Positions 21,465-42,399 of a stretch of DNA of 64,000 bases are shown one piece after another. Made by a program: the position numbers and the translations under genes. Source of the DNA: Rhodococcus triatomae BKS 15-14 (GTDB lineage: Bacteria > Actinomycetota > Actinomycetes > Mycobacteriales > Mycobacteriaceae); contig AODO01000038.1 in the NCBI GenBank assembly GCA_000341795.1, positions 1 to 64,000 of the forward strand. The letters are read 5' to 3'. Each line of letters starts with the position of its first letter. The first letter of the stretch is position 1. The notes beneath the pieces are model-generated. The model was not told the DNA's origin. It did no database searches and saw nothing but the letters and a program-made list of their open reading frames with translations.

Positions 21465-22829
21465 ATGCCGAGCATGCGCTCTCCCCGCGTCCCGAGCCGG
21501 ACGAGGCTCACCGTCGCCCTCACCGGAGCCCTCCTGCTCGGTGTCTGTGCCTGCGGGTCGCAGGGCACCGGCACCGGCACCGGCGCCGCTTCGACCTCGC
21601 CGTCCGCGATCACCGGCACGCCCGCGACCGGACTCGGTGTCGGCGCACTCGGCCCGGTCGGCCTCACCGTCACGGAGGGAACGGATGCCGGTTCCGCCGA
21701 AGGCAGATCGCTCGACGTCCCCCCGGGATGGACCGCGGAGGTGTGGGCGGACGTCCCCGGTGCACGGCTCGCGGCGTGGGCGCCCGACGGGAGCCTGGTC
21801 GTGTCCACCGGCGACCGCGGCGTCGTCACCCGCCTGCGGTCCGCTTCCGACGGCTCGGCGCCGGTCTCCTCCCTCCTGCTCGACGAGCTGGACGATCCCC
21901 AGGGCGTGGCGTTCGCCGACCGGAACGGACGGGCGGTCCTCGTGGTGGGCGAGGACACACGGATCGTCTCGTGGGACTACACCGACGGGACCGTGTCGAA
22001 CCGACGCGTGCTGGTCGACGGACTCCCCTCCTCCGGTCACGGCAGGAAAGCCGTGACCGTGCGGGGCGACACGGTGTTCTACAGCCTCGGGTCGAGCGGG
22101 AACCGGGAGCCCGCGGACCGCACCGAGGACCCGCAACGAGCCACGCTCTGGCAGGTGCGTCTCGACGGGACCGGGAACGGCGTCGTCGCCACGGGTGTCC
22201 GCAACGGGTTCGGCCTCGACGTCGCCCCGGACGGGACGCTGTTCGTCGCGGTGAACCAGTCGGACAACCAGCCGTACCCCTTCCGGGACGACGACGGCGC
22301 GTACGAGCGGCTGGTGCGGGAGTACGTCGACGAGAACCCGATCGAGCAGGTTTCCCGCGTCACCCCCGGAACCGAGCTGGGCTGGCCGCTGTGTGTGCCG
22401 GACACCCGTGGTGGCGGCGTCACCGAGGTGCCGTACGTGAACGACCCCGTGACCAACGCGAACGGGCAGGAACTCGACTGCGCCGGCATCCCCGACACCA
22501 TGGTCGGTCTGCCGGCCCATTCCGCGCCCCTCGGCCTCGAGTTCACCGCGGGGACCGCGCTGGAGCCGGTCCTCGGGAGCGGCGCACTGATCACGGCGCA
22601 CGGATCGTGGAACCGTGAACCTCCGCGGCCACCGTTCGTCGCGTTCAGCCGCTGGGACGACGCCACGGCCACGCTCGGCGCCCCGGTCGAACTGGTCACC
22701 GGGTTCCAGCTCGACGACGGCTCCCGGTGGGGTCGCGCCGTCACCTCCGTCCCCGGTCCGGACGGATCGCTGTACGTCACGGACGACGAGGCCGGCCTCG
22801 TTTATCGGCTCACGCCCGGCGGGGAATGA
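21465..22829 (+). CDS. PQQ-dependent sugar dehydrogenase-like lipoprotein
   Basis: 454 aa from ATG 21465 (ATG 21474 possible); TAGCGT lies 6 nt upstream. The signal peptide ends in the lipobox-like VCAC. The rest is a six-bladed beta-propeller of the glucose/sorbosone dehydrogenase family: VDGLPSSGHGRKAVTVRGD, VATGVRNGFGLDVAPDG, NPIEQVSRVTPGTELGWPLC, LITAHGSWNREPP. Family members oxidise sugars with PQQ outside the membrane. No PQQ synthesis genes are nearby, so cofactor and substrate are unverified. Confidence 0.85.
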   Translation: MPSMRSPRVPSRTRLTVALTGALLLGVCACGSQGTGTGTGAASTSPSAITGTPATGLGVGALGPVGLTVTEGTDAGSAEGRSLDVPPGWTAEVWADVPGARLAAWAPDGSLVVSTGDRGVVTRLRSASDGSAPVSSLLLDELDDPQGVAFADRNGRAVLVVGEDTRIVSWDYTDGTVSNRRVLVDGLPSSGHGRKAVTVRGDTVFYSLGSSGNREPADRTEDPQRATLWQVRLDGTGNGVVATGVRNGFGLDVAPDGTLFVAVNQSDNQPYPFRDDDGAYERLVREYVDENPIEQVSRVTPGTELGWPLCVPDTRGGGVTEVPYVNDPVTNANGQELDCAGIPDTMVGLPAHSAPLGLEFTAGTALEPVLGSGALITAHGSWNREPPRPPFVAFSRWDDATATLGAPVELVTGFQLDDGSRWGRAVTSVPGPDGSLYVTDDEAGLVYRLTPGGE

Positions 22830-22856
22830 CCGTCCCCGCCGCCTCGTTGACCAGAC

Positions 22857-23267
22857 ATGACGACACTCGAGATCTCCCCACGAGTAGCCGAGCGCCTGAG
22901 CGGCGAAGAGGTCATCTGGCTGACGACCGTGCGCCGTGACCTCGGCCCGACGCCGACGCCGGTCTGGTTCCTCTGGACAGAGGGCGGATTCCTCCTCTTC
23001 AGCGAACCCGGCACGGCCAAACTGCGCAACATCGCAGCCGCGCCCGGGGTGACGCTGCATCTCAATTCGGACGCCCACGGCGGCGACGTCGCCGTGTTCA
23101 CCGGGAAGGCCACGATCGACGAGTCCGGGCCGACTGCGGCCGAGTGGGCCGCCTACGTCGAGAAGTACGAACGAGGTTTCGCGTCGATCGCCATGTCACC
23201 CGAGGAGTTCCGGCGGTCGTACTCCGTCCTCGTGCGGGTGGCGCCGGATCGGCTCCGCGCCTGGTGA
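22857..23267 (+). CDS. F420-dependent PPOX-class oxidoreductase
   Basis: 136 aa from ATG 22857. The split-barrel fold starts with SGEEVIWLTTVRRDLGPTPTPVWFLW, followed by KLRNIAAAPGVTLHLN, which fits the TIGR03667-type F420-dependent group related to Rv3369. Such proteins reduce small molecules with reduced coenzyme F420. It is the last chromosomal gene before the integrated element. Confidence 0.87.
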   Translation: MTTLEISPRVAERLSGEEVIWLTTVRRDLGPTPTPVWFLWTEGGFLLFSEPGTAKLRNIAAAPGVTLHLNSDAHGGDVAVFTGKATIDESGPTAAEWAAYVEKYERGFASIAMSPEEFRRSYSVLVRVAPDRLRAW

Positions 23268-23307: not shown

Positions 23308-23351
23308 TGTGGAGCTAAGGGGACTCGAACCCCTGACCCCCACACTGCCAG
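23308..23351. repeat. attL: 44-bp direct repeat of the tRNA-Ala 3' half
   Basis: This copy is identical to 33242-33285 and diverges immediately on both sides. It corresponds to the tRNA from the anticodon loop to 2 nt past its 3' end; the 5' half of a tRNA is absent here, so it is not a functional gene. Confidence 0.92.
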
Positions 23352-23374
23352 ACTGGAAACGTATGTATCGCCCT

Positions 23375-23469
23375 GTTTCGCCTGGTTTCATCCAGTTCAC
23401 GAAAAGCGTTCGCCACCACCAATTCTTGTGCCGCTCAGTTTCGCTGAGTGTCACCTAGTTCCATCTGGA
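23375..23469 (+). repeat. Phased 10-bp repeats, candidate integrase arm-type sites
   Basis: Five imperfect units with a 10-bp register start at 23375 (GTTTCGCCTG), 23385 (GTTTCATCCA), 23438 (GTTTCGCTGA), 23448 (GTGTCACCTA) and 23458 (GTTCCATCTG). They form a pair and a triplet within 120 bp of attL, on the arm side expected for integrase or excisionase binding. Related units occur inverted at 29674-29713. Confidence 0.5.
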
Positions 23470-23551
23470 CAAGGACGCCGAATGGACGCTCCGGGCACCG
23501 CCGGAGTGCCAGCACCAGGCATCTGCACCCCTGTCTGTGAGGGTGCGCAGC

Positions 23552-23809
23552 ATGACGACAGAGGCAGAAGTCAGGCAGGCCCCGCACCCAGCGACTCGGT
23601 CGGCGTCCGAGTGGTCCCTGATCCACGCGCGGGCGGTCCGGGAAGGCACAGACGGGTCACTAGAGGATCGGGCCGCGGTGGTTGCGTGCGCGTACTGGCG
23701 CATCCGCAGGGTGGTGAACGACACGCGCCCCGTGATCGGAGGCAGTGCCGCAGACCTCCTGATGGCCGAACTCGACGAGCACGCGTCGACGTGGGTGGTG
23801 GCCCGGTGA
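23552..23809 (+). CDS. Hypothetical protein, first gene of the left operon of the element
   Basis: 85 aa from ATG 23552. I do not recognise a domain. The sequence is mostly helical and charged (SASEWSLIHARAVREG, DRAAVVACAYWRIRRVV), soluble, with no signal peptide. The stop overlaps the GTG of the next gene by 4 nt, so the two are translationally coupled. Confidence 0.6.
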   Translation: MTTEAEVRQAPHPATRSASEWSLIHARAVREGTDGSLEDRAAVVACAYWRIRRVVNDTRPVIGGSAADLLMAELDEHASTWVVAR

Positions 23810-24483
23810 GCCCCTGGCGGAAGCGTGGCACCGCGACCGCGCCTCCCAGTCCGAGCCAGGACGAGCAGCGGGTGCGGCGTCGGAACCGGCTGCCGGTCGA
23901 GTACGGGCCGAGTTTTTCGCTCCCCGCCGAGGTGGAGGCGATCGTGCAGCCGCTCGCGGAGCGGGTCGCCGCGATGCGTGGCCGGCACATGGTCGCGCCG
24001 GAGGTGGACGCGCTGGTGACTGCGACGCACAAGGCGGTGGTGGATCTCACCCGGCAGGTGGCGATCGGTGAGGCGGCCGGGAGGACGCGGCACCTGACGG
24101 GTACCGACCAGATCGCGGCGCGTGCGGCGTTGGTGGATGCGGTGGAGCTGCCGGAGCGTCCGGCGACGGTGGGTGCCGCGTTGGCGTCGGTGGCGTGGGG
24201 GTGGGAGTTGGTGTCGGCGGCGGAGCGGGTGTCGGCGGTGTTGTCGACGCGCCTGGGTGGGCCGCAGGTGGTGCGTGGGATGCAGTGGTCCGAGCGGGTG
24301 TTGGTGGCGTTGCGGCCGGTGGATGCCGCGGCCGTGGCGTTGGAGCAGCGCTTGGATCGTCTGGAGCGGGCGACGGCGGACCGCGCTCGGCAGCAGGCGG
24401 TGTCGCCGAGGGAGAAGGCGCTGGCGTTGCTGGCGTCGATGGATCTGCAGCCACTGGACGTCCTCGGTGGAGGTGAGCGATGA
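23806..24483 (+). CDS. Hypothetical helical protein in the left operon of the element
   Basis: 225 aa from a GTG overlapping the previous stop. The N-terminal 30 residues are basic and disordered; the rest looks all-helical and Ala/Val/Glu-rich (AEVEAIVQPLAERVAAM, ALEQRLDRLERATADRARQQ). No family was recognised. A coiled-coil stretch near the C-terminus could mediate oligomerisation. Codon choice is unusual for the window (many GTG, TTG and GCG codons), consistent with transferred DNA. It overlaps the peptidase gene by 4 nt. Confidence 0.65.
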   Translation: MSPWRKRGTATAPPSPSQDEQRVRRRNRLPVEYGPSFSLPAEVEAIVQPLAERVAAMRGRHMVAPEVDALVTATHKAVVDLTRQVAIGEAAGRTRHLTGTDQIAARAALVDAVELPERPATVGAALASVAWGWELVSAAERVSAVLSTRLGGPQVVRGMQWSERVLVALRPVDAAAVALEQRLDRLERATADRARQQAVSPREKALALLASMDLQPLDVLGGGER

Positions 24484-25112
24484 GCGGGCGGGATGCGTTG
24501 GTCGAGCAGATCGCGGCAGCGTGCGTGCACGAGGCGAGTCACTGCGTGGCCGCGGTTGCGGCCGGTGGACGGATCCGCGGGTGTTGGGTGGCGCGTGAGC
24601 TGGTCGACATCGGCGTCGACGATGCGGGCGGGGTGCTGTACGACGGCGTCAGCGGGGGCGCCGACCGGGATGCGACGCTGGCTGGTTCGGCGGGGGAAGC
24701 GTTGTGGCGGTTCGGGCCGTATCCGACTGTGCGGCAGTTCGACGAGGTGTGGCGTCGGTCGGGTGCTGCGGACCGTGAGGCGGTTCTGTTGGCTGACGCT
24801 GCGGACGTGTCGACCGGGTTCAGGTCCGGCCTGGGTGAGATTGCGTCGACGTTGCGGGCGGTGTGGGAGCCGGTGGTGGTGCCGTTGGCTGCCCGGTTGG
24901 CGGGGACGGGGACGTTGATGCATTCGGAGGTGTGCGAAGTGTTGGGTGTGTCGATGCTCGGGCAGGGCCGGTTTCCGGTGGTGGCGTCCTTCGGTGCGGT
25001 GTCGGCTCCGGCGAGGTTGGCGGAGCACGTGGAGCGGTTCGCGAGGCCGTTGCCGGGGGTTCATGTGAGGCGTGCGACTGCTGCGGCGGTGCGTGAGCGG
25101 TGGGCGTCGTGA
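24480..25112 (+). CDS. Stand-alone HExxH peptidase domain (FtsH/M41-like)
   Basis: 210 aa from ATG 24480, overlapping the previous stop by 4 nt. Residues 17-21 are HEASH, an HExxH zinc site in a helix (ACVHEASHCVAAVAAGG), followed by ATLAGSAGEALWRFG, which resembles the segment after the zinc site in the M41 (FtsH) protease domain. No AAA ATPase or transmembrane domain accompanies it. It could be a small zinc protease acting on a host or phage regulator, or an ImmA-like relative; the third zinc ligand is not obvious, so activity is uncertain. Confidence 0.6.
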   Translation: MSGRDALVEQIAAACVHEASHCVAAVAAGGRIRGCWVARELVDIGVDDAGGVLYDGVSGGADRDATLAGSAGEALWRFGPYPTVRQFDEVWRRSGAADREAVLLADAADVSTGFRSGLGEIASTLRAVWEPVVVPLAARLAGTGTLMHSEVCEVLGVSMLGQGRFPVVASFGAVSAPARLAEHVERFARPLPGVHVRRATAAAVRERWAS

Positions 25113-25258
25113 GCGGGGAGCGGGTGTCGGTGGGTCGTGGCGGTCGTGATCCTCGGCCACCGGTGCCGGTGCCGGTGAGGTTGCAGCCGCAGCGGAAGCG
25201 GACCCATGAGCGGGCGGCAGCGCGTGCGGCTCGTACCGCTGGCCGTCTCGCGGGATGA
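25109..25258 (+). CDS. Small basic protein (49 aa)
   Basis: 49 aa from a GTG overlapping the peptidase stop by 4 nt. The sequence is Arg/Pro/Val-rich (DPRPPVPVPVRLQPQRKRTH) and ends in an Ala/Arg-rich helix. No family was recognised. Overlap with its neighbour is the main evidence that it is translated. Confidence 0.4.
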   Translation: MSGERVSVGRGGRDPRPPVPVPVRLQPQRKRTHERAAARAARTAGRLAG

Positions 25259-25286
25259 AGGAGCGGTGGTGAAGGGAGGTATGGGC

Positions 25287-25475
25287 GTGCATAGGAGCTC
25301 GGACCGGCGGCGGGCGAGGGATGTCCTGTCGGCGAAGCAGGCGAAGGGTTCGGTTGCGTTGTCGCGTGCGGAACTCGATGGGGCGCCGCCGTTGCTGGAT
25401 GGTCGGTCGCGGCGGCGGGAGCGGCGGCGGTTGGAGCGTGCGGCGGCGAAGGCTGCCCGGAGGGCGTGGGCGTGA
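25287..25475 (+). CDS. Small basic hypothetical protein (62 aa)
   Basis: GTG 25287 was chosen because GGAGG ends 7 nt before it; the ATG at 25281 lies too close to that site. The protein has many Arg residues at both ends (RSSDRRRARDVLSAKQAKGS, RSRRRERRRLERAAAKAARR) and may bind nucleic acid. No family was recognised. It overlaps the next gene by 4 nt. Confidence 0.45.
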   Translation: MHRSSDRRRARDVLSAKQAKGSVALSRAELDGAPPLLDGRSRRRERRRLERAAAKAARRAWA

Positions 25476-25660
25476 CGGGTGGTCGGGGTGCGCGGTTCTG
25501 GCATGTGGTGCTTGCCGTGGAGGTCGTGGTGATCGTCCTGCTGCTGGTTCTTCGGTCGGGTCCGGAGTCGGCGGTGGTGATCCGGGAACGGGTCCAGGTT
25601 GACCCGATCGCGGCTGCTGGTGTGGCACGCCTGGCGGGTGAGCGTGTCTGGCAGGCATGA
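25472..25660 (+). CDS. Small single-pass membrane protein
   Basis: 62 aa from a GTG overlapping the previous stop. One strong hydrophobic segment (WHVVLAVEVVVIVLLLVL, about residues 10-28) is followed by a short polar tail. Last gene of the left operon. Topology suggests a membrane anchor; superinfection exclusion or a peptidase partner are open possibilities, without direct evidence. Confidence 0.5.
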   Translation: MTGGRGARFWHVVLAVEVVVIVLLLVLRSGPESAVVIRERVQVDPIAAAGVARLAGERVWQA

Positions 25661-25710
25661 ATCACGGTGATGCACAGAGGAACACGCGGACGTACCCTGC
25701 CGAACTCATG

Positions 25711-25802
25711 TAGACTCAAGCCGTGCAACCAGCACACACCCGCTCGGAGTAGCCCGAGCGGTAATGGGAATTGAGGCCCTTCCGGAGAGATCCGGTGGGG
25801 CC
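25711..25802 (+). promoter_or_regulatory. Promoter and two-hairpin leader of the excisionase-like gene
   Basis: TAGACT (25711-25716) is a good -10 box. Downstream lie a perfect 8-bp hairpin (25740-25747 with 25754-25761, loop AGTAGC) and a second hairpin, GGCCC-TT-CCGGA-GAGA-TCCGG-TG-GGGCC (25775-25802), followed by TTCGTC. The second looks like an attenuator, leaving about 55 nt to the ATG at 25858. Confidence 0.45.
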
Positions 25803-25857
25803 TTCGTCGTCCCCGCCCCACTTCTCCCCGGAAGGCCAGGGAGAGCAGGGCAGCAGC

Positions 25858-26115
25858 ATGAAGAAGACCACGGTCGACACCACGGCGAGCAACCGCCGGA
25901 TCAACAAGCAGGCCGCGGAGCCGAAGTTCACGGTCGAGGACCTGCGGAAGAACCCGACGTGCACCATCCCGCAGGCCGGGGAAATCCTCGGGTTGGGTCG
26001 GGTCGCCGCATACGAGCTCGCGAAGAAGGGCGGGATCAAGACGATCCAGCTCAGCGAGCGGACGTACCGGGTGCCGTCCCGGTGGTTACTGGAGCTGATC
26101 GGCGAGGAAGCGTGA
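25858..26115 (+). CDS. Excisionase-like helix-turn-helix protein
   Basis: 85 aa from ATG 25858. After a basic N-terminus it has a MerR-type/AlpA-like winged helix: FTVEDLRKNPTCTIPQAGEI, then LGLGRVAAYELAKKGGIKTI and YRVPSRWLLELIG. This HTH_17 pattern is typical of recombination directionality factors of actinobacterial integrative elements and phages. It lies about 5.4 kb from the integrase rather than beside it, so a transcriptional role is also possible. Confidence 0.7.
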   Translation: MKKTTVDTTASNRRINKQAAEPKFTVEDLRKNPTCTIPQAGEILGLGRVAAYELAKKGGIKTIQLSERTYRVPSRWLLELIGEEA

Positions 26116-26260
26116 AGGCCGGTGATCGCACTGGCGACGTTCACCCTCCCGGCCCGGCGCCCTCGTCCTGGGGCTGACGTCCACGTGACGGCCTCGAATG
26201 AGGGTGTCCCTCGGGGGAATCATCGCCTGGGGGGCTTCGAAGCGCTGCGGCACGTACGAC
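26116..26260 (+). other. Gap after the excisionase-like gene with a possible 25-codon ORF
   Basis: A short ORF from ATG 26198 to 26275 reads MRVSLGGIIAWGASKRCGTY and then DGVHV. It ends in the same GVHV-stop that closes the 30660-30929 gene at the start of the second leader cassette. No ribosome site is evident, so translation is doubtful; it may be the relic of a longer gene. Confidence 0.25.
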
Positions 26261-26425
26261 GGGGTCCACGTGTAGGGACTTTCAGCGAATCCGAATACCT
26301 CCACAACCGATCCGCTGTAACGGCTGCGTGCGGGGATAGTCTCGCCAAAACCCTTACACCACAACACAATTCAGGGGTTCTGTGAATGGGAGCGGCCCCG
26401 ACCGGAAGGGCAGCCAGTCGGGGCC
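26261..26425 (+). promoter_or_regulatory. Leader cassette A (repeated at 30915-31073)
   Basis: Blocks shared with cassette B are GGGGTCCACGTGTAG (26261), ACTTTCA (26278), TCCGAATACC (26290), CGCCAAAACCCTT (26343) and ATTCA (26369), with inter-block distances conserved within 1 nt over 113 bp. The unconserved stretch at about 26309-26340 can fold. A hairpin with 9-bp arms (26394-26402, 26417-26425) follows. An AAGGAG at 26441-26446 and a hairpin at 26459-26482 come next, without a clear start codon. It is probably a regulatory leader for the replication operon. Confidence 0.55.
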
Positions 26426-26527
26426 AGGGGCGCTCACCAGAAGGAGTGTTCGCTACCGCCGACGCCGAGTCTACGGCGTCGGAGCGGCGGCGACAGCAGC
26501 AACGACGACGGAAAGGACGTGGTGGGC

Positions 26528-26692
26528 GTGAGTGTGTTCGACGGTGGCCTGCAACCGAACGGCGACTTCCACCGGTACGACGCGCTCGGCGGGTACCGGC
26601 CCGGAGCGGGACGGAGGAAGCCGAAGCCAGACGACGCGGTCAGGGTGGACGTGGGTGTCCAGCCTGAGCCGGCTGAGGAGGCCGAACGGTGA
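26528..26692 (+). CDS. Small protein upstream of the replication initiator
   Basis: 54 aa from GTG 26528 (GTG 26522 possible) after AAGGA. The sequence VSVFDGGLQPNGDFHRYDAL then GGYRPGAGRRKPKP is followed by an acidic C-terminus. No family was recognised. Its stop overlaps the initiator GTG by 4 nt, which supports real translation and coupling. Confidence 0.5.
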   Translation: MSVFDGGLQPNGDFHRYDALGGYRPGAGRRKPKPDDAVRVDVGVQPEPAEEAER

Positions 26693-27795
26693 CCGGCTGG
26701 ACGAAGCTGCAGTGGTACAAGGACGTCATCGGATGCCACACGCACCTGACTCCGCGGGAGCGGTGGGTGCTGATTGCGGTCGCCGCTCACACCAGACGGG
26801 ACGGGCGCCGCTGCTACGCGTCGAAGGCGACGCTCGCCTTGGAGACCGGTGTCGCGAAGGGAGACATCGGCGGTGTCCTGCAGGCTTTGGTGAGGAAGGG
26901 CTATCTGGAGCTGACCGAGCAGGGCGGCAACGCGAACGGCTATCGGCGGTCGAACGTGTACGCGTTGGTGCGGGAGATGCCGCATCGGAAGCCTGGAGAG
27001 AGGGCTGCCGTCGAGGAGTCGGAGGAGTCGGAGCAGACCCCCGCAAGGGGGGGTGAAACGCACCCCCTTGCGAAGGCAGCAAGGGGGGGTGAAGCGCACC
27101 CCCTTGAAGCGGATGAAGGGGGTGCGTTTCACGGAACGAAGGGGGTGCGTTCCACAGAACGAAGGGGGGGTGAAGCGCACCCCCCATCAGGTACTAACGA
27201 TCAGGGTAAAAACGATCACCCCCCCGCTGCGCGTGGGGGTTCCCCCCTACCCCCCACGACGGCAGCGGCGAACGGCACGAACGGGGCGGCGAAAAACGGG
27301 GCGCACACGCTCACGCCAATCGAGCTGTCGAAGCTCGCGATGACGACGCTCACCGTCCCGCCAACCGGCGACGTCGACTGGAAGCGCATCCGCGGAGACG
27401 ACGAGGCGTTCCGCCGGTACCTCCGCACCCTCGGCTACCCGCCAGCCGCCATCGACAGGGCCGTCCACCGCTCCGCGATCGAAGCACCGAGCGCCGCAGC
27501 CAAGGCCGCGGCCCGCGAACTCATCGCCGTGCGCGCCGACGACACCCAGAACCTCGAACCGCTCTGGGAGCCGTACCAGATCCAGCGAGCCGTCCGCGAC
27601 GTCGGAGCCCCCGCCGTCCTCGCCGCCCTCACCGCCCGCCCGGCAACGCTCGACGAACTCGCCGCACCCGACACCCCGAACCGCCGCCTCTTCGGCCTCG
27701 CCGTCGACCTGCTCGAACTCCGAGGAGAGATCGCCGCCGACGCCGGGGGCCGGTACCAGCGCACCCACACCCGCACGAACGGAGCCCGACGATGA
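26689..27795 (+). CDS. Replication initiator-like protein carrying iterons in its gene
   Basis: 368 aa from a GTG overlapping the previous stop. Residues about 1-100 resemble the winged-helix N-terminus of phage replication proteins (LTPRERWVLIAVAAHTRRDG, YASKATLALETGVAKGDIGG, LVRKGYLELTEQGG). A Gly/His/Pro-rich linker (about 105-190) is encoded by iteron-like DNA. The C-terminal half is helical (DVDWKRIRGDDEAFRRYLR) and not recognised. The arrangement mirrors lambda O, where the origin lies inside the initiator gene. It ends in an ATGA overlap with the zinc-binding protein gene. Confidence 0.65.
   Translation: MTGWTKLQWYKDVIGCHTHLTPRERWVLIAVAAHTRRDGRRCYASKATLALETGVAKGDIGGVLQALVRKGYLELTEQGGNANGYRRSNVYALVREMPHRKPGERAAVEESEESEQTPARGGETHPLAKAARGGEAHPLEADEGGAFHGTKGVRSTERRGGEAHPPSGTNDQGKNDHPPAARGGSPLPPTTAAANGTNGAAKNGAHTLTPIELSKLAMTTLTVPPTGDVDWKRIRGDDEAFRRYLRTLGYPPAAIDRAVHRSAIEAPSAAAKAAARELIAVRADDTQNLEPLWEPYQIQRAVRDVGAPAVLAALTARPATLDELAAPDTPNRRLFGLAVDLLELRGEIAADAGGRYQRTHTRTNGARR
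27053..27222 (+). repeat. Iteron array and AT-richer segment: candidate replication origin
   Basis: Five copies of the 15-mer GTGRARCGCACCCCC start at 27053 (+), 27089 (+), 27118 (-), 27141 (-) and 27170 (+), where (-) copies read GGGGGTGCGTTYCAC. Several also form hairpins with flanking GCAAGGGGG. Immediately downstream, 27186-27217 is locally AT-richer (GTACTAACGATCAGGGTAAA), a possible unwinding element. All of this lies inside the initiator coding sequence. Confidence 0.7.
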
Positions 27796-28058
27796 CCGGT
27801 AACCCGCCGATCCGCTGCAACGGCTGCGACGCGACATGGACAGCGCTGGGCGCTTGCCACTGCACCGGCTGCCACGAGACGTTCACCGGCCTGACCGCAT
27901 TCGAGAAGCACCGCCGCGACGGCCACTGCCACGACCCCGCCTCGGTCGGGCTCGTCCCCGCGAACCGCGGCTGGACCGGCTGGGGATGGCCCGGACACCC
28001 CGACCGCACCTACCCCGACGACGCAACAGGCCCGCACGCCTCTAGGAGCGAGCCGTAG
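27792..28058 (+). CDS. FDXHR-type putative zinc-binding protein
   Basis: 88 aa from an ATG overlapping the initiator stop by 4 nt. Its pattern CNGCDATWTALGACHCTGCH, then FTGLTAFEKHRRDGHC, with two CxxC-like pairs and a His-containing zinc site, is the small zinc-binding protein common in actinophages and actinobacterial mobile elements. Function unknown; a nucleic-acid or protein adaptor is plausible. Confidence 0.7.
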   Translation: MTGNPPIRCNGCDATWTALGACHCTGCHETFTGLTAFEKHRRDGHCHDPASVGLVPANRGWTGWGWPGHPDRTYPDDATGPHASRSEP

Positions 28059-28148
28059 AGCCACGAACCCGCTCACCCCTACCGGGAACCCCAGAACGCC
28101 GACCGCGCACACCACAGACCCGCACAGCCCCGAAACGGAGGAACCGCG

Positions 28149-28409
28149 ATGAGACACCCCAGCCGGCCAACCCCCAGCCCCGCGCGGCTCCTCGAATCGA
28201 GGATCGACGGCAACTCGACCATCGACGTCGCACGCACGAACGGAGTCAGCACGGCCCACGTTCGGCGGCTGGTACGGACCGAACTCGACCGCCTCGGATA
28301 CCGAGGAGTCGGCGAACTCGACGCCCTCGTCCAACTCCGCTCCGCCGCCCTCGACGCAATGTGGGAGCAACGCCACCCAGGAGAACCCATGCCCGAGGAG
28401 CAGCCGTGA
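28149..28409 (+). CDS. Small helix-turn-helix protein
   Basis: 86 aa from ATG 28149 with GGAGGAACC upstream. ESRIDGNSTIDVARTNGVST, then AHVRRLVRTELDRLGY, looks like a resolvase/Hin-type or sigma-like HTH that reads DNA with a second Arg-rich helix. No larger domain. It overlaps the next gene by 4 nt, suggesting a joint function, for example DNA recognition for the terminase-like protein. Confidence 0.5.
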   Translation: MRHPSRPTPSPARLLESRIDGNSTIDVARTNGVSTAHVRRLVRTELDRLGYRGVGELDALVQLRSAALDAMWEQRHPGEPMPEEQP

Positions 28410-28921
28410 CCGGCAACGGGAACCGGTCAGGACGTGGCCGACGGCAACGCGGAGTCGCCCGGTCCGGGCGCAGCGAAGCCCAGATCGCCCGCGCCCAGCG
28501 CGCCCTCGACCTCCGCGTGAACGGGGCGTCGTGGCAGCAGATCGCCGAGGAGGTGGGGTTCCGTGACCCGAGTTCCGCCGCCCGGCTGGTCCACAGGTAT
28601 CAGGCCGATCTGGGGGCCGAGCTGTCGGACGAGTTGCGCCTGATCGACCTGGAGCGCGCCCGGCTGTTGTTCGCGAAGGCGCGGCAACGGCTGTTCCAGG
28701 TGGAGCAACGAGGCGGCACTGACAGCGACTGGGTGAAGGTGTTCGCACAGGCGTTGAACGCGGCCCACTTCCACGCGAAGGTCGCCGGGAACGTGGACCG
28801 GCGGGTGGAGGTCGAGGTGTCGTCGACGCCGCAGGAGGTCCGCGACCTCCGGGACCAGTTCATCGAACTGCAGGCGCTCCGAGCGGTGGATCCGGTGGAC
28901 GCCGAAGTCGTCGAGGAGTAG
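28406..28921 (+). CDS. Small-terminase-like (TerS) DNA-binding protein
   Basis: 171 aa from a GTG overlapping the previous stop by 4 nt. A basic N-terminus (GNRSGRGRRQRGVARSG) precedes AQRALDLRVNGASWQQIAEE and VGFRDPSSAARLVHRY, a helix-turn-helix of the form seen in actinophage small terminases, then a helical oligomerisation-like region (LIDLERARLLFAKARQRLFQ) and an acidic tail. Family placement is by pattern, not alignment. A satellite TerS would let the element redirect a helper phage's packaging motor; a plain transcription factor is the alternative. Confidence 0.45.
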   Translation: MTGNGNRSGRGRRQRGVARSGRSEAQIARAQRALDLRVNGASWQQIAEEVGFRDPSSAARLVHRYQADLGAELSDELRLIDLERARLLFAKARQRLFQVEQRGGTDSDWVKVFAQALNAAHFHAKVAGNVDRRVEVEVSSTPQEVRDLRDQFIELQALRAVDPVDAEVVEE

Positions 28922-29060
28922 GCGGACGAGTCTCACAACCAAACATCTGAGACGAGCGAGCGAAAGGTGTTGCAGTGCAGCATCTCCCACCTCACGCGTC
29001 TCACAACTCATCGCAAATCAAAACTGTGCGGGTACCACTTTTGAAACTAGGATCGGTTGC
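28922..29060 (+). promoter_or_regulatory. Repeat-containing region upstream of the serine recombinase
   Basis: GTCTCACAAC occurs twice in direct orientation (28930-28939, 28998-29007), and TGAGAC (28948-28953) is inverted to the first copy, giving GTCTCA-N12-TGAGAC. The region is comparatively AT-rich before the ATG at 29061. These may be recombinase binding sites (res-like subsites) or operators. Confidence 0.4.
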
Positions 29061-29645
29061 ATGACAACGCAATTGGGCTACACGAGAGTCAGCACCCACC
29101 ATCAGTCCCTCGACCAGCAGGACGACGAACTCCGCGCCGCCGGAGTGCCTGCCGACCGCATCTACGCCGACCGGATGACCGGCACGTCCACGAAGGAGCA
29201 GCGGCCCGGCCTCACCGCCCTCCTCGACTACGCCCGCGAGGGTGACGTCATCGTCGTCGTCGGCATCGACCGCCTGGGCCGGAACGCCGCCGAGGTGATG
29301 CTGACGATCCGAGACCTCGGCCAACGCGGCATCGTCCTCCGCTCGCTGAGGGAGGGCATCGACACCGGCAACGCGACGGGCCGGATGATCGCGGGCATCT
29401 TCGCGTCGCTGGCGGAGCTGGAGTTGGAGTTGCAGCACGAGCGCCGGGCCGCAGCCGCAGCCGCCCGGAAGGCGCGCGGCCTGCCGGTCGGACGGCCGCC
29501 GAAGCTGCGACCGGATCAGGTCGCGCTCGCCGGGCGGATGAAGGCGGCAGGGGAACCTGTCGACGTCATCGCCGCGGCGCTGGGCGTGTCGAGGGCGACG
29601 ACGTACCGGGCCGTCAACCTCCACGCAGCAGGCGACGGTCTGTGA
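29061..29645 (+). CDS. Small serine recombinase (resolvase/invertase family)
   Basis: 194 aa from ATG 29061. The catalytic domain begins LGYTRVSTHHQS with nucleophile Ser11, followed by the conserved DRMTG, VGIDRLGRN and the E-helix GNATGRMIAGIFASLAELE; a C-terminal HTH (VDVIAAALGVSRATTYRAV) completes it. Such enzymes resolve or invert DNA between short sites. It lies between the two leader cassettes and beside phased repeats. It is not of the large serine integrase type, so it is unlikely to integrate the element. Confidence 0.9.
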   Translation: MTTQLGYTRVSTHHQSLDQQDDELRAAGVPADRIYADRMTGTSTKEQRPGLTALLDYAREGDVIVVVGIDRLGRNAAEVMLTIRDLGQRGIVLRSLREGIDTGNATGRMIAGIFASLAELELELQHERRAAAAAARKARGLPVGRPPKLRPDQVALAGRMKAAGEPVDVIAAALGVSRATTYRAVNLHAAGDGL

Positions 29646-29656
29646 CATGCGTCACA
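29641..29656. promoter_or_regulatory. Inverted repeat at the recombinase stop codon
   Basis: TGTGAC-ATGC-GTCACA spans the stop codon of the serine recombinase gene and is a plausible operator for the downstream winged-helix gene. Confidence 0.3.
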
Positions 29657-29673
29657 AATCGGCGAACCAGCAG

Positions 29674-29713
29674 AAACCCACCGATACCCACCGCAACTCA
29701 CCGAAACACCCTG
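29674..29713 (-). repeat. Second phased 10-bp repeat array, inverted relative to the attL array
   Basis: Read on the minus strand, the units are GTTTCGGTGA, GTTGCGGTGG, GTATCGGTGG and a partial GTTTCTG, in exact 10-bp register. The first differs from the attL unit GTTTCGCTGA at one base. An 11-mer GTTCACGAAAA lies near both arrays (23395-23405 and 29763-29773). Confidence 0.5.
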
Positions 29714-29824
29714 CGCGGCAACGCCAGCGGCACCCCTTGCCTGCCTCGGAGGTCGGATCTAGGTTCACGAAAACCAACACCAGCCAAGCGCAGCCAGACT
29801 GCGCGACACCCGCCAGGAGAAGAG

Positions 29825-30109
29825 ATGCCGCCCCCCAACACCATCACCGAGCACGTCGTCGAGGTGTACCGCGCCCTACGCGACGCCGACGGATGGCTCA
29901 CCCCACAGGAGATCGCCGACCGCGCAGGCATCTCCAACCGCTCCGCCCTCCGCCACGCCAGCCGCCTCGTCGCCGAAGGGCTGGCCGAACTGGTCGAGAC
30001 GGTCCCGTACCGGTATCGGCTCGCCGGACCGCAGACCGGCGCATTCCACGCCCGAATGGCGAAAATCGCTGCGGCGCTCGGTACCCCACTCGACGAACCC
30101 GCCAACTAG
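29825..30109 (+). CDS. Winged-helix regulator
   Basis: 94 aa from ATG 29825 after AGGAGAAGAG. VYRALRDADGWLTPQEIADR, then AGISNRSALRHASRLVAEGL and a wing (TVPYRYRLAG) form a MarR/IclR-like winged helix-turn-helix without a ligand domain. It probably controls one of the element's promoters. It is monocistronic: it has its own upstream region and is followed by a strong terminator. Confidence 0.7.
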   Translation: MPPPNTITEHVVEVYRALRDADGWLTPQEIADRAGISNRSALRHASRLVAEGLAELVETVPYRYRLAGPQTGAFHARMAKIAAALGTPLDEPAN

Positions 30110-30166
30110 GCGGCTCAGCAGGTCAGGGGTCGGCGGTAGGCTGCGAAGCCTCTCCTGGCGGGGAGC

Positions 30167-30199
30167 GGAGGGGGTGAACCGCATCGGTTCACCCCCTCC
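30167..30199 (+). terminator. Terminator hairpin within the element
   Basis: A 15-bp perfect stem (30167-30181 with 30185-30199) has a 3-nt loop, after the winged-helix gene. Its arms contain GGGGGTGAACCGCA, resembling the iteron core; this may be coincidence. Confidence 0.7.
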
Positions 30200-30345
30200 T
30201 CCGTCTCCCGCGCCCGTAACACGAATCGGGTTGCGGCACAACCCTTTCCACTGGCTTCGCGGGACGCCGTCAACTAGGCTGAAAGTACCTGCTAGACAGG
30301 CATTTTCACCGGAACGAGCCGGGGAAACGACACGGGAGAGAGCCC

Positions 30346-30660
30346 ATGAACGAGATCAACATGAAGGTCGCGGACACCGCGTTGGAGGCAGTGCACCGCG
30401 CCGGAGTCCAGTTCGTGCTGGCCGCACGCGACAACGTGAAGCGCAGCCAGAACGCGCTCGACGCCCTGACGTCCGGCCTGCTGCCGTCGTTCACCGAAAC
30501 GACGAACCTCCGACCCCTGGAAGACCAGCTCCGGATGGCCGTCGACCTGGCGTTGGTGGCGGGCGTCCCGGCCCCGCTGGTCGCCCTCGCCGCGCGAGAC
30601 GACGAAGAGTACTTCGGCGCCCGGATGGACTGGCACCGCGCAGCAGAGCAGGCCGCGTGA
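30346..30660 (+). CDS. Hypothetical protein of the element
   Basis: 104 aa from ATG 30346 after GGGAGAGAG. It is helical and soluble (DTALEAVHRAGVQFVLAARD, LRMAVDLALVAGVPAPLVAL, DDEEYFGARMDWHRAAEQ). No family was recognised. The stop overlaps the next ATG by 1 nt. An upstream -10 candidate, TAGGCT or TAGACA, lies near 30276-30297. Confidence 0.6.
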   Translation: MNEINMKVADTALEAVHRAGVQFVLAARDNVKRSQNALDALTSGLLPSFTETTNLRPLEDQLRMAVDLALVAGVPAPLVALAARDDEEYFGARMDWHRAAEQAA

Positions 30661-30929
30661 TGAGCACGCAGATCGAGCAGGTGCGGGCGACCGCCGAACT
30701 GTGGTCGTGGGCCGAGGTTCAGGCCGACGACCGGCACGTGGTGTTCCGGAACCAGGCGGGGGACGGCGACGTCGCGTTGACGGTGCAGTGGGGCAGGTCA
30801 ACGGGTCAGGTCCTGTCCGCGTGGCTGGTCCGCGAAGGCCGGATCACGACGGTGGTCGGTGCTGCGGCCAGTGGGAAGGTCGCCGAAGTGCAGTACGCCC
30901 TGCAGACCCACACGGGGGTCCACGTGTAG
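30660..30929 (+). CDS. Hypothetical protein ending at leader cassette B
   Basis: 89 aa from ATG 30660, overlapping the previous stop by 1 nt. It appears alpha/beta, with SWAEVQADDRHVVFRNQAGD, then VALTVQWGRSTGQVLSAWLV. No family was recognised. The last codons and stop (GVHV) fall inside the first conserved block of leader cassette B. Confidence 0.6.
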   Translation: MSTQIEQVRATAELWSWAEVQADDRHVVFRNQAGDGDVALTVQWGRSTGQVLSAWLVREGRITTVVGAAASGKVAEVQYALQTHTGVHV

Positions 30930-31073
30930 CCACTTTCACGGGTTCCGAATACCCCAACCACCGAACCCGGCAATCGGGACGTAGGCGGGAAAGATCGCCA
31001 AAACCCTTCCACTACAACAACATTCAAGGTGTCCCGGCCTCCCGCCTCCTGCTACGGGGCGGGCGGCCGGGAC
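30915..31073 (+). promoter_or_regulatory. Leader cassette B (repeat of 26261-26425)
   Basis: Conserved blocks are at 30915, 30932, 30944, 30996 and 31022. A short hairpin, CCCG-GCAAT-CGGG, occupies the unconserved middle. A GC-rich hairpin follows, with outer arms 31031-31039 and 31065-31073 and inner arms 31041-31046 and 31058-31063. The next gene (DUF488-like) starts 35 nt later, so this is probably the leader of the int operon. Confidence 0.55.
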
Positions 31074-31107
31074 GCCCCCAGTGAACCACACGAGGGAGAG
31101 CACGCTG

Positions 31108-31491
31108 ATGTCGTACGAGATCGCGACATGCAGTTATCGAGAGTGGCGCCCGGAGATGGGCGTACCGATCCGCACCAGCCGAGGTGCACCCCGCGGCTGG
31201 CAAGGCGAGTTGCCCGCCTGGGCCGCGGTGTATCCGACGTGGCCGATGCGGCAGATCACCGACCGCGACGAGTTCACCCGCCGGTACCTGGCCCGCCTCG
31301 ACGGGTACGGCGTCGAGCACGCCGCCGCAGACCTGGCCGCCATAGCCGACGAGACGAACGCCGACACGCTCATCCTCTGTTGCTTCGAGGTCAGCTTGAG
31401 CGAACGGATCTGGTGCCACCGCAGTGTCCTGGCTGCATGGCTGTCCGACCGGCTCGGTATCGACGTCCCCGAGCTGGGAGCGCACCGATGA
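31108..31491 (+). CDS. DUF488-like phage protein
   Basis: 127 aa from ATG 31108, 9 nt after GAGGGAG. It shows the DUF488 pattern: ATCSYREWRPEMGVPIRTSR, WAAVYPTW, and the C-terminal signature LILCCFEVSLSERIWCHRSV then LAAWLSDRLGIDVPEL with Cys, Glu, Cys and His/Arg in the usual places. Small DUF488 proteins are frequent in actinophages; function is unknown. It is translationally coupled to int by an ATGA overlap. Confidence 0.7.
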   Translation: MSYEIATCSYREWRPEMGVPIRTSRGAPRGWQGELPAWAAVYPTWPMRQITDRDEFTRRYLARLDGYGVEHAAADLAAIADETNADTLILCCFEVSLSERIWCHRSVLAAWLSDRLGIDVPELGAHR

Positions 31492-32654
31492 CCGACGACC
31501 GCGCCCAGTACACGCAGGACAGCGTCCAGAAGCTCCCGAGCGGGAAATGGCGAGCGCGGCCGACGCTCGGACGTGACCCGAAGACCGGGGAGGCGGTGCG
31601 GCCGACGAAGACGTTCCCGACGAAGACCGCAGCGCGGGAGTGGGTGAAGGAGCAGCGCCGCCAGTGGGACTCCCACACGTGGTCCGCCCGGTCGGACAGG
31701 ACGTTCAACGAGTGCGCCGACCACTGGCTGTCGGTGCGGGACGCCGACCCGGACGTCTCCGCGAACACGTGCCGCGCCGACCGCGAATCCCTCGCGTACT
31801 CCCGGCGGGCGTTCGGGGAGGTCAACGTCCAGCGGCTCACCCCAGCCGGGCTCGTCGACTGGTCACTCACCGTGACCAGCCGAACCGGGGAGCCCCTGGC
31901 GGCGTCGACGCGACGCCGTGCGATCGGGAGTGTGCAGCAGGTGCTGCGGCACGCGATGCGGATGCGGTGGATCACGTTCGACCCGAGTTCCGAGCTGACC
32001 GCCCCGAAGCAGCGGGAGGTGGTTGCCGCCGAGGCCGACGACGTGTGGACGCCACGGCAGATGGAGACGTTCCTGGAGTCGGTGTTGGAGCATCGACTGG
32101 CGGGATGCTTCGCGTTGTCGCTCCTCGGGTTGCGGCGGGAGGAGGTCGCCGGGCTCCGCTGGAGCGACCTGGACCTCGTCCTCGGCGAGTTGCGTATCCG
32201 GCAGGCACGCGTCGACGTCAACGGTGTCGACGTCATCGTTCCACCGAAGACGGCGCGGTCGGTGCGGGACCTTCCCATCCCGGAGCGGGAGTTGGCGATC
32301 CTCCGCAGGATGCACGCCGGGCATCGCCGCGAACGCCTCGCGCTCGGGTCTCCCCTCCAACCGACCGATCTCCTCCTCGTAGGGATCGACGGGAGCCCGC
32401 TGCCGGTGAGGCGGTACACCGAGTTGTTCCGGGATCGCCGCACGCGGGCGGGTCTGCCTCCGGTCCTCCTGCGGAACCTGCGGCATAGCTCGGTGTCGCG
32501 GATGCGGGCTGCGGGTGTGCCGGCCGATGTGGTCGCCGCGTGGCATGGACACTCTGAGCGGATGACGACGGCGGTCTACGGGCGGGTGACGGATGACCGG
32601 TTGAAGGCAGCAGTGCAGGTGTTGGAGAAGGCGAGCGGAGGAGAGTGGACATGA
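31488..32654 (+). CDS. int: Tyrosine site-specific integrase
   Basis: 388 aa from ATG 31488. The N-terminal arm-binding domain (KLPSGKWRARPTLGRDPKTG) is followed by a SAM-like core-binding domain and the catalytic domain: Arg216 in LGLRREEVAGLRW, the hairpin Lys in PPKTARSVRDLPI, Arg332-His333 in LRNLRHSS, His355 in WHGHSERMTT, and Tyr364 nucleophile in TAVYGRV. The usual first His of the HxxR box is Arg329. It integrates the element into tRNA-Ala; attR lies about 590 bp downstream. Confidence 0.92.
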   Translation: MTDDRAQYTQDSVQKLPSGKWRARPTLGRDPKTGEAVRPTKTFPTKTAAREWVKEQRRQWDSHTWSARSDRTFNECADHWLSVRDADPDVSANTCRADRESLAYSRRAFGEVNVQRLTPAGLVDWSLTVTSRTGEPLAASTRRRAIGSVQQVLRHAMRMRWITFDPSSELTAPKQREVVAAEADDVWTPRQMETFLESVLEHRLAGCFALSLLGLRREEVAGLRWSDLDLVLGELRIRQARVDVNGVDVIVPPKTARSVRDLPIPERELAILRRMHAGHRRERLALGSPLQPTDLLLVGIDGSPLPVRRYTELFRDRRTRAGLPPVLLRNLRHSSVSRMRAAGVPADVVAAWHGHSERMTTAVYGRVTDDRLKAAVQVLEKASGGEWT

Positions 32655-33136
32655 ACGAGATGTGGCTACCGGTGGTCCGGTACATGGGCCTGTACGAGGT
32701 GTCCGACCTGGGCCGGGTGCGGGCGGAACGCAATGGCCTCATCCGCAAGTTGTATCGAGACCCCGATGGCTACCTCCGTGTCGGCCTCAGCCATGACGGG
32801 CGCAGCGAGACGAGGGGTGTGCATCAACTCGTCCTCGCCGCGTTCGTCGGGCCGTGCCCGACTGGCTTCGTGTGTCGCCATCTGGACGGGAACCCGGCGA
32901 ACAACGGGCTCTCGAACCTCGGGTACGGGACGCGGTCTGAGAACAACGTCGACGCAGTCGAGCACGGCACCAATCGGAACGCGGCGAAGACGAAGTGCGT
33001 GAACGGCCACGAGTTCACACCGGAGAACACGTACGTATGGACACACCGGGATGGGCGGACGATGCGCCAGTGTCGGAAGTGTGATCGCGACCGTAAGCGC
33101 GCTCGCCGCGCGACCGCCGGTGAGACGAAAATCTGA
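32651..33136 (+). CDS. NUMOD4-HNH endonuclease
   Basis: 161 aa from ATG 32651, overlapping the int stop by 4 nt. It begins with a NUMOD4 motif (MWLPVVRYMGLYEVSDLGRV) and an HNH nuclease core (GVHQLVLAAFVGPCPTGFVC, RHLDGNPANNGLSNLGYGT). A C-terminal treble-clef-like zinc site is formed by CVNGHEF and CRKC. It resembles free-standing homing endonucleases of phages. In this setting it may be a passenger or give an advantage over other phages. Confidence 0.88.
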   Translation: MNEMWLPVVRYMGLYEVSDLGRVRAERNGLIRKLYRDPDGYLRVGLSHDGRSETRGVHQLVLAAFVGPCPTGFVCRHLDGNPANNGLSNLGYGTRSENNVDAVEHGTNRNAAKTKCVNGHEFTPENTYVWTHRDGRTMRQCRKCDRDRKRARRATAGETKI

Positions 33137-33192
33137 CCGAACAAGGACGCGTAAAGGACACACCGGCGTTGTCCGCGGCAGTGCCGGACAGA

Positions 33193-33229
33193 CGAAAACC
33201 CCATCTGACCACTTCAGATGGGGTTTTCG
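33193..33229. terminator. Bidirectional terminator at the right end of the element
   Basis: A 16-bp perfect stem (33193-33208 with 33214-33229) has a 5-nt loop with A and T tracts on both sides. It terminates the int-HNH operon from the left and the tRNA-Ala gene from the right, replacing the chromosomal terminator now separated beyond attL. Confidence 0.88.
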
Positions 33230-33241
33230 TGTGAGGTCCTT

Positions 33242-33285
33242 TGTGGAGCTAAGGGGACTCGAACCCCTGACCCCCACACTGCCAG
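33242..33285. repeat. attR: 44-bp direct repeat, 3' half of tRNA-Ala
   Basis: Identical to 23308-23351. It restores an intact tRNA-Ala gene after insertion. Confidence 0.92.
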
Positions 33286-33316
33286 TGTGGTGCGCTACCA
33301 GCTGCGCCATAGCCCC
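33244..33316 (-). tRNA. tRNA-Ala(GGC)
   Basis: The 73-nt cloverleaf starts GGGGCTA and ends TAGCTCC plus discriminator A; CCA is not encoded. D arm GCGC/GCGC, anticodon arm CCACA-CTGGCAG-TGTGG with anticodon GGC, and T arm AGGGG-TTCGAGT-CCCCT are all intact. The 3' part from the anticodon loop onward is supplied by the element. Confidence 0.96.
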
Positions 33317-41842: not shown

Positions 41843-41972
41843 TGAAGGTGGCCTTCATGCGGGTGAACGAGATGAAGGCCACCTTCAGCCGACCCAGTGA
41901 GATGAATGCCACCTTCGGCCGACTGGGTGAAGGTGGCCTTCATGCGGGTGAACGAGATGAAGGCCACCTTCA
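41843..41972. repeat. Tandem long palindromic repeat (REP-like)
   Basis: Two palindromes have identical 16-nt arms, TGAAGGTGGCCTTCAT and ATGAAGGCCACCTTCA, each separated by the same 13-nt loop (41843-41887 and 41928-41972). A half-element, GATGAATGCCACCTTC (41901-41916), lies between. The 3' unit is nearly a copy of the 5' one. It could also terminate the lipase transcript. Confidence 0.85.
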
Positions 41973-41988
41973 GCCGATTGGGCGGGGA

Positions 41989-42321
41989 TCAGCGGCCCGG
42001 CCAGGGCGGCAGCGGCGGCTTGACCCACGTGATCTTCTCGTCCGCGTGGGCGGGTACCGACCGCGGATCGTCCGGATGAGCGTCCGCCCAGCGGGTCTTC
42101 TCGTCGAGCAGCTCCGCGACGACGGTCCACGTCTCCCTCGTGCTCGGTGGATTCGCTCCCGCCTCGCGGGCCAGCTTGCGCAGCCGATCGTCGGTCATCG
42201 CGAGCAGTTCGTCGCCGGTGATCGCGCGGTCCCACACGAATCGCGCCAGATTCAGGGCCTTGTCCCGGCGTCGACGCGCGGCGGCCTCGGTGTGCGCGAA
42301 ATCGGCGGGTTCCTGGTCCAC
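41989..42321 (-). CDS. Conserved hypothetical protein
   Basis: About 110 aa from GTG 42321 (GTG 42342 would add 7 residues). Its sequence is helical with a basic patch (EAAARRRRDKALNLARFVWD), TDDRLRKLAREAG, and a tryptophan-rich C-terminus (KITWVKPPLPPWPG). No family with known function was recognised. It lies downstream of tmRNA on the same strand, beyond a strong terminator. Confidence 0.6.
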   Translation of the reverse strand: MDQEPADFAHTEAAARRRRDKALNLARFVWDRAITGDELLAMTDDRLRKLAREAGANPPSTRETWTVVAELLDEKTRWADAHPDDPRSVPAHADEKITWVKPPLPPWPGR

Positions 42322-42361
42322 GCGGCCAGCGTAGCGACCCACCGCCCGGCCCCGGACACGA

Positions 42362-42395
42362 CGAGGGCCCCGGACCGTGTGGTCCGGGGCCCTCG
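42362..42395. terminator. Terminator of tmRNA
   Basis: A 15-bp perfect GC-rich stem (42362-42376 with 42381-42395) closes on a GTGT loop immediately 3' of the tmRNA gene. Confidence 0.85.
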
Positions 42396-42399
42396 TTCG

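What the first reader, a model, noticed from the sequence alone, without database searches (positions are those of the whole stretch)
23308..33285. 9.9-kb phage-satellite-like element integrated in tRNA-Ala(GGC)
Sequence shows 44-bp perfect direct repeats, an intact tRNA restored on one side, and a one-direction gene set: integrase, excisionase-like, initiator with origin, terminase-like, serine recombinase, HExxH peptidase, FDXHR, DUF488, HNH. No virion, lysis, Tra or relaxase genes are visible. Known satellites (PICI, PLE and others) combine integration, replication and packaging redirection; a rhodococcal family with this gene set is not one I recognise.
Basis: partly seen in the sequence, partly recalled or inferred. 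Interest (0 to 1): 0.85.

Follow-up and report, generated by a model that had tools for sequence, protein, structure and literature searches.

The report
Phage-satellite-like island in tRNA-Ala gene
A 9.9-kb island sits in a tRNA gene of an actinobacterium; relatives in other genera suggest it belongs to a family of small genetic parasites that probably travel inside the shells of certain actinobacterial viruses.

Summary
A 9.93-kb island, its called genes on one strand, lies between 44-bp perfect repeats in tRNA-Ala(GGC). In the 5 same-genus genomes examined the site is empty. No virion, lysis, portal or TerL family matched its proteins.

Comparison favours a phage satellite. Its gene g02 has relatives in 24 of 401 family genomes, host included. 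In 26 loci with a called g02, an HExxH peptidase gene starts within 2 kb downstream in 25, and a terminase-small-subunit-like gene (phrog_645) lies on the same strand in 22. Thirteen also carry a homologue of the phage 'major capsid pentamer protein', and 11 a same-strand large terminase. g02 and the peptidase had no match in 50,697 phage records.

These genes point to phages with separate hexamer and pentamer capsid proteins as likely helpers. The window's element lacks pentamer and TerL genes; its TerS-like protein groups with two phage proteins. Two PICI criteria fail: a 56-kb prophage uses the same att site, and int is not divergent from xis/rep. I call it a new satellite variant. Induction and packaging are untested.

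The parts
23308..23351 (.). attachment repeat, far end (44 bp, 3' part of tRNA-Ala)
   Evidence: single core copy and no island in 5 of 5 same-genus genomes
33242..33285 (.). attachment repeat overlapping the intact tRNA-Ala(GGC)
33243..33316 (-). intact tRNA-Ala(GGC), integration target
23537..23809 (+). g01, 90 aa, unknown (gene finder starts it at 23552)
   Evidence: no Pfam family at E<=1
23806..24483 (+). g02, 225 aa, element-specific core protein of unknown function (gene finder starts it at 23791)
   Evidence: A6 profile hits 24 of 401 family genomes, host included; no phage match
24480..25112 (+). g03, HExxH peptidase, FtsH/M41-like predicted fold without an AAA domain
   Evidence: no phage match
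25109..25258 (+). g04, about 49 aa, weak Arc-like repressor match
   Evidence: phrog_3431, E 0.002; not called by the gene finder
25269..25475 (+). g05, about 68 aa, unknown (gene finder starts it at 25206)
25466..25660 (+). g06, about 64 aa; membrane-spanning judged by eye
   Evidence: no family
25858..26115 (+). g07, HTH_17, excisionase-like
26519..26692 (+). g08, 57 aa, unknown
26689..27795 (+). g09, O-like replication initiator
27043..27187 (+). iteron cluster inside g09, likely replication origin
27792..28058 (+). g10, FDXHR zinc-binding protein
   Evidence: PF24071 7.8e-21
28149..28409 (+). g11, 86 aa, HTH-like, weak phrog_645 match
   Evidence: E 0.0019; TerS profile E about 0.03
28406..28921 (+). 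g12, terminase-small-subunit-like (phrog_645)
29061..29645 (+). g13, small serine recombinase (invertase/resolvase type)
29825..30109 (+). g14, winged-helix regulator-like
   Evidence: HTH_24 1.6e-5
30346..30660 (+). g15, 104 aa, unknown
30660..30929 (+). g16, 89 aa, unknown
31108..31491 (+). g17, 127 aa, DUF488-like, overlaps int by ATGA
31488..32654 (+). g18, tyrosine integrase
32645..33136 (+). g19, NUMOD4/HNH endonuclease (gene finder starts it at 32651)
26261..26376 (+). first copy of an imperfect direct repeat (segments 81% and 86% identical), function unknown
30915..31029 (+). second copy of that repeat, starting at the 3' end of g16

Best explanation
It is an integrated phage satellite, PICI-like in life style. 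Inferred cycle: the integrase (g18), with the xis-like g07, excises the circle through the tRNA-Ala core. The O-like initiator g09 fires the origin inside its own gene. When a helper phage enters, the TerS-like g12 directs the helper's large terminase to satellite DNA, which fills helper heads. g02 and the FtsH-like peptidase g03 are conserved family functions, perhaps acting on helper capsid assembly or on a repressor. Shown here: integration site, empty sites, gene content, the conserved core in other genera, homology of sister packaging genes to one group of phages, and no match to known virion families. Inferred: induction, replication, helper identity, packaging, and the roles of g02 and g03.
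For: Perfect att repeats; empty site in 5 of 5 same-genus genomes. Integrase relatives at E<=1e-60 in 12 of 401 family genomes, host included; 10 of these 12 lie beside tRNA-Ala(GGC). g02 in 24 of 401 genomes, 10 of 31 genera, host included. In 26 loci with called g02: HExxH starting within 2 kb downstream 25, TerS-like on the same strand 22, pentamer homologue between g02 and HExxH 13, same-strand TerL 11 (5 of the 26 were known before that search, and the profiles grew on these loci). Pentamer homologue: 61-68% identical in the 10 phage rows listed, 3 of the 10 annotated 'major capsid pentamer protein'. TerL best 64%. In a prophage at the same tRNA site a phrog_645 gene ends 3 bases before the TerL gene, the usual TerS slot. 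Viral fold library: 5 of the first 17 rows are named terminase small subunit, 2 of them at E<=0.001. g12 groups with Taptic and Soos proteins at 97/98 support. No FtsK/TraB or relaxase family among Pfam matches.
Against: No induction or packaging data. The host genome shows no Phage_portal, no PF03354 TerL, no sister-type TerL and no pentamer homologue, so no resident helper of that kind was found. The window's element lacks the pentamer and TerL genes of many sisters. phrog_645 is labelled 'Rnase E'; Taptic's copy lies 46 kb from TerL, and no TerL is annotated in the parts of Soos that I saw. PDB searches gave no clear TerS match, and the TM-scores of the five TerS-named viral matches are low (0.28-0.53). 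Pfam gives the prophage copy no TerS family. The tree has only 4 phage-type rows, and they fall in 3 places among the elements.
Confidence: 0.78

Rival explanations
1. A defective prophage: a temperate phage that lost its virion genes and is now a fossil.
For: Phage-type int, initiator, TerS-like and FDXHR genes. A 56-kb prophage with a 58-60% identical integrase occupies the same tRNA site in G181.
Against: g02 and HExxH had no match in 50,697 phage records but recur in other genera in conserved order. Reading frames are open, and HExxH is kept in 26 of 26 members.
Confidence: 0.1
2. A mobilizable or conjugative integrative element (IME/AICE type) that moves by plasmid or conjugation machinery.
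For: tRNA integration, own initiator, small size, serine recombinase.
Against: No FtsK/TraB, relaxase or plasmid replication family in Pfam at E<=1. The initiator had no match in 72,556 plasmid records, nor did a sister g02.
Confidence: 0.06
3. A satellite that does not redirect packaging by g12: g12 is an HTH regulator, and DNA enters helper heads through a cos/pac-like sequence alone (PICMI-like).
For: The phrog_645 label is not TerS; Taptic's homologue is far from TerL, and none is annotated near Soos's. PICMIs encode only three core proteins for excision and replication (PMC10803314 passages).
Against: phrog_645 gene directly before TerL in the G181 prophage. Several viral fold matches are named TerS. 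The gene recurs in 22 of 26 core loci.
Confidence: 0.2

Closest known systems
Phage-inducible chromosomal islands (SaPI/PICI)
   Same: Integrase, xis-like gene, own initiator and likely origin, TerS-like gene, no virion or lysis genes found, about 10 kb.
   Different: Called genes all on one strand, no divergent repressor pair seen, att site shared with a prophage, O-like initiator instead of primase. Criteria from PMC6092414 (passages).
cf-PICI and candidate Mycobacterium PICIs, with phiRv1/phiRv2
   Same: Small integrated actinobacterial elements. Sister L048 at the same tRNA carries a protease-capsid fusion.
   Different: The published Mycobacterium screen required integrase plus capsid (PMC10654092, passages); no capsid gene was found in the window's element, so that rule would not list it.
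SaPIbov5 (Ccm)
   Same: Thirteen of 26 core loci encode a homologue of a phage pentamer protein. Ccm, a capsid-protein homologue of SaPIbov5, forms the pentamers of small capsids (PMC8569155, passages).
   Different: Here the homologue is of a dedicated pentamer protein, and the window's element lacks it. No capsid has been seen.
PICMI (Vibrio satellites)
   Same: Small gene set, and a gene overlapping int by ATGA (PICMI iolg; PMC10803314 passages), seen in 7 of 7 integrases checked.
   Different: Positional likeness only. PICMIs carry a primase and alpA; no TerS is mentioned in the passages seen.
Streptomyces satellites MiniFlayer/MulchRoom
   Same: Actinobacterial satellites of tailed phages.
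   Different: They carry small and large terminase, portal, capsid and scaffold genes (PMC10690885, passages); this element does not.

Membership tests
PICI (criteria in PMC6092414) | integrase plus replication module | tested here: met
PICI (criteria in PMC6092414) | conserved organisation with divergent regulator pair, int opposite to xis/rep | tested here: not met
   called genes all on + strand, no divergent regulator. In sisters L022, L051 and L020 int is divergent
PICI (criteria in PMC6092414) | att site never occupied by prophages | tested here: not met
   G181 carries TerL, portal, protease and a 1609-aa tape-measure-sized gene behind a 58-60% identical integrase at tRNA-Ala(GGC), between two core copies (1 mismatch each) 56.4 kb apart
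PICI (criteria in PMC6092414) | no phage structural or lytic genes | tested here: met
   19 island proteins against Pfam and 18 of them in the right frame against PHROGs at E<=1: no virion or lysis family; one weak TerS hit (g13, E 0.4)
PICI (criteria in PMC6092414) | size about 12-15 kb | tested here: inconclusive
   9.93 kb; sisters 6.8-16.7 kb
PICI (criteria in PMC6092414) | genes exclusive to the element class | tested here: met
   only for g02 and HExxH: no match in 50,697 phage records
PICI (criteria in PMC6092414) | helper-dependent induction, interference and packaging | not testable with these tools
   needs experiments
cf-PICI | own capsid, portal, connectors, TerS and TerL | tested here: not met
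   no capsid, portal or TerL match in the island
AICE / conjugative element | FtsK/TraB-type translocase or relaxase | tested here: not met
terminase small subunit (g12) | HTH plus helical oligomerisation domain, gene next to TerL | tested here: inconclusive
   predicted HTH plus long helices (pLDDT 71); TerL neighbour only in a relative; PDB search inconclusive
M41 (FtsH-type) peptidase (g03) | HExxH and M41 fold | tested here: inconclusive
   HExxH in 26 of 26. First 26 Foldseek rows are all FtsH or related AAA proteases, best E 5.4e-3, model pLDDT 64. Pfam's only hint is M50B at 0.005

The most novel reading that the evidence does not exclude
An undescribed satellite family of one actinobacterial family (by the GTDB grouping used here), marked by a g02-[pentamer]-FtsH-like-peptidase cassette. 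It would parasitise phages whose shells use separate hexamer and pentamer proteins: sisters supply their own pentamer protein to force small shells and their own TerS/TerL to fill them. The window's element is a stripped form that kept g02 and the peptidase, lost pentamer and TerL, and took a TerS from a phage, so changing helper specificity.
Probability: 0.35. Interest if true: 0.82.

Novelty: new variant of a known kind. Interest (0 to 1): 0.62.

Why it matters
Experimental validation of satellites in actinobacteria is lagging (PMC10023795, passage), and the published Mycobacterium screen looked for integrase plus capsid (PMC10654092, passages). A family mostly without capsid genes, in 24 of 401 genomes, would be missed by that rule. 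Its borrowed genes name a testable helper group: phages with hexamer/pentamer shells or the same TerL, such as CRB2, Soos and Taptic. If the pentamer copy resizes helper heads, it would be a second, independent case of the trick known from SaPIbov5.

Tried and rejected

The join test carried too little left flank, so the empty site now rests. Two short finder-only ORFs (23309-23458, 26122-26385) had no Pfam family and were not scanned elsewhere.

Rows dropped: L107 (g02 not called by my gene finder) and the broken G032 fragment are outside the 26 loci. The A7 scan used 86 unassigned proteins of at least 75 aa from 14 repeat-bounded elements; only 25 of 35 matching families were shown.
Full report
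OBSERVATION. The window holds two perfect 44-bp repeats, 23308-23351 and 33242-33285, and no other copy within 3 mismatches. The right copy lies in an intact tRNA-Ala(GGC), 33243-33316 minus. The island is 9.93 kb, GC 68.6% against 70.0% for the rest of the window. In 5 of 5 same-genus genomes the stretch on the island's side of the tRNA holds a single core copy, no match to an island protein, and left-flank genes of the window in the same order. In G003 the homologue of the window's 20687-21304 gene ends about 0.6 kb from the core. In the other four genomes the nearest shared gene is the homologue of 13939-15027, 0.3 to 7.6 kb away. The two genes nearest the island (21.5-23.3 kb) were not found there, so the left flank has changed a little too. 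The direct join alignment agrees but carries only 12-39 bp of left flank in three genomes and none in two.

GENES. Called genes are all on the + strand. Coordinates and evidence are in 'parts'. The initiator g09 matches phage replication initiators (best 7.6e-10) and contains five copies of GTGAARCGCACCCCC within one mismatch, 0.03 expected. Repeated 11-mers also lie inside the initiator genes of Gordonia phage Chickadee, L060 and L059 (no control run), as in a lambda-O type origin (lambda recalled). g17 is DUF488-like at Pfam's cut-off. g03 is predicted to have an FtsH-like fold: the first 26 PDB rows are FtsH or related AAA proteases, none at E<=0.001 (best 5.4e-3; model pLDDT 64), so this is likely, not shown.

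THE SAME INTEGRASE AND SITE ELSEWHERE. Integrase relatives at E<=1e-60 occur in 12 of 401 family genomes, host included. Ten of these lie beside tRNA-Ala(GGC); in L056 and L058 no tRNA was found. Nine elements, the window's included, have repeats of 44 bp or more around 6.9-16.7 kb. L111, found through g02, sits in an identical tRNA with 13.7 kb between repeats. Contents vary: L022 and L051 share g02, HExxH, TerS-like and xis with the window. L048 carries a prohead protease-capsid fusion. L055 carries a DNA methylase and a ResIII helicase. L057 carries what look like insertion-sequence genes (judged by eye). G181 has a prophage there: TerL, portal and protease and a 1609-aa gene resembling a long gene of L058 (no tape-measure family in Pfam), with core copies 56.4 kb apart.

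THE CORE ACROSS INTEGRATION SITES. A g02 profile (A6) rang in 24 of 401 family genomes, 10 of 31 genera, host included. I fetched 22 further neighbourhoods and annotated them with local profiles grown on these loci. With W, L022, L051, L061 and L062 there are 26 loci with a called g02. HExxH starts on the same strand within 2 kb downstream in 25 (not L100). TerS-like lies on the same strand in 22 (not L098, L100, L105, L117). The pentamer homologue lies between g02 and HExxH in 13. TerL lies on the same strand in 11. Repeats overlap tRNA-Val, Leu, Pro and Ala genes in several; others have large serine integrases. In 14 repeat-bounded elements (one of them, L020, without g02), 86 otherwise unassigned proteins gave no virion, tail or lysis family among the 25 of 35 PHROG families shown. 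L117 has a capsid gene (PF05065 3.4e-16) beside a shortened g02.

LINK TO PHAGES. The pentamer homologue (phrog_779) of L062 matches 503 phage records, best 68%; of the 10 rows listed, 3 name it 'major capsid pentamer protein' and 7 'hypothetical protein'. It has no Pfam family. CRB2 and Soos carry it next to or near their major capsid gene. TerL of L051 is 64% identical to prophiT49-1 and 51% to Taptic. The TerS-like family matches Taptic gp64, Soos gp19 (annotated terminase small subunit; the homologues in Sting and Clawz are called DNA binding, hypothetical or Rnase E), and a phrog_645 gene that ends 3 bases before TerL in the G181 prophage. In a tree of 30 rows W's protein groups with Taptic and Soos (97/98) and apart from the 25 other element rows. 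The other two phage-type rows fall elsewhere, L063 beside L061, L022 and L106 (95/94), and the prophage row on a long branch with L020. So phage and element copies are mixed, and W's copy may be a captured phage allele: a lead, not proof. g02 (three queries) and HExxH (two) have no match in the phage records at E<=0.01.

ORDER. In L051 and L062 the order is xis, replication gene, TerS, C12, serine recombinase, g02, pentamer, HExxH, TerL. On the circle the window has g02, HExxH, xis-like, initiator, TerS-like, serine recombinase in the same relative order, but int and att sit between the recombinase and g01. I read this as a moved integration module. In W the gene overlapping int by ATGA is g17; in the six other integrases checked it is a different conserved gene (C02).

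HELPER. The host genome shows no Phage_portal, PF03354 TerL, sister-type TerL or pentamer match; all four searches had controls that rang. A helper would have to come from outside, or be of a type these models miss.

MECHANISM AND LIMITS. Best reading: a satellite with its own integration and replication, and packaging steered by g12. g02 and g03 flank the pentamer gene in 13 loci, which suggests a role in head assembly. An alternative for g03 is cleavage of a repressor, as HExxH ImmA does in ICEBs1 (recalled). Neither is tested. PICI membership fails on two tested criteria, so I say 'works like a PICI', not 'is a PICI'. Papers: only passages or listings were seen.

Noticed in passing
G000:C34, locus L060 about 4621-13082: A second satellite-like element in the same genome: large serine integrase, O-like initiator, major head protein (phrog_10), terminase small subunit (phrog_1496) and head-tail adaptor (phrog_137); no PF04860 portal in the genome. 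Resembles phiRv1-type elements (recalled).
   Followed up: partly
window 26261-26376 and 30915-31029: Imperfect direct repeat (segments 81% and 86% identical) flanking the 4.65-kb initiator-to-g16 block; the second copy starts at the 3' end of g16.
   Followed up: partly
L061 1-13243: A viral-collection contig holds a sister element (int to HExxH, about 6.5 kb) convergent with head genes (capsid-like, putative portal and TerL judged by eye) across a tRNA cluster.
   Followed up: partly
L055 10741-15296: An element at the same tRNA carries an N6/N4 DNA methylase followed by a ResIII helicase, possibly a type III restriction-type defence cargo.
   Followed up: partly
window 41898-42489 (-): ARAGORN reports a second, permuted tmRNA overlapping the real tmRNA at 42399-42767; probably an artefact.
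   Followed up: no
OR475291.1, MK059749.1: Annotation: CRB2's 'terminase small subunit' gp7 shows no likeness to the phrog_645 family, while phrog_645 itself is labelled 'Rnase E'.
   Followed up: partly
window 21465-23267: The two genes just left of the island (sugar-dehydrogenase-like by eye, and a 136-aa gene) were not found beside the tRNA in G003, which shares genes up to 21304; possibly a second local gain or loss.
   Followed up: no
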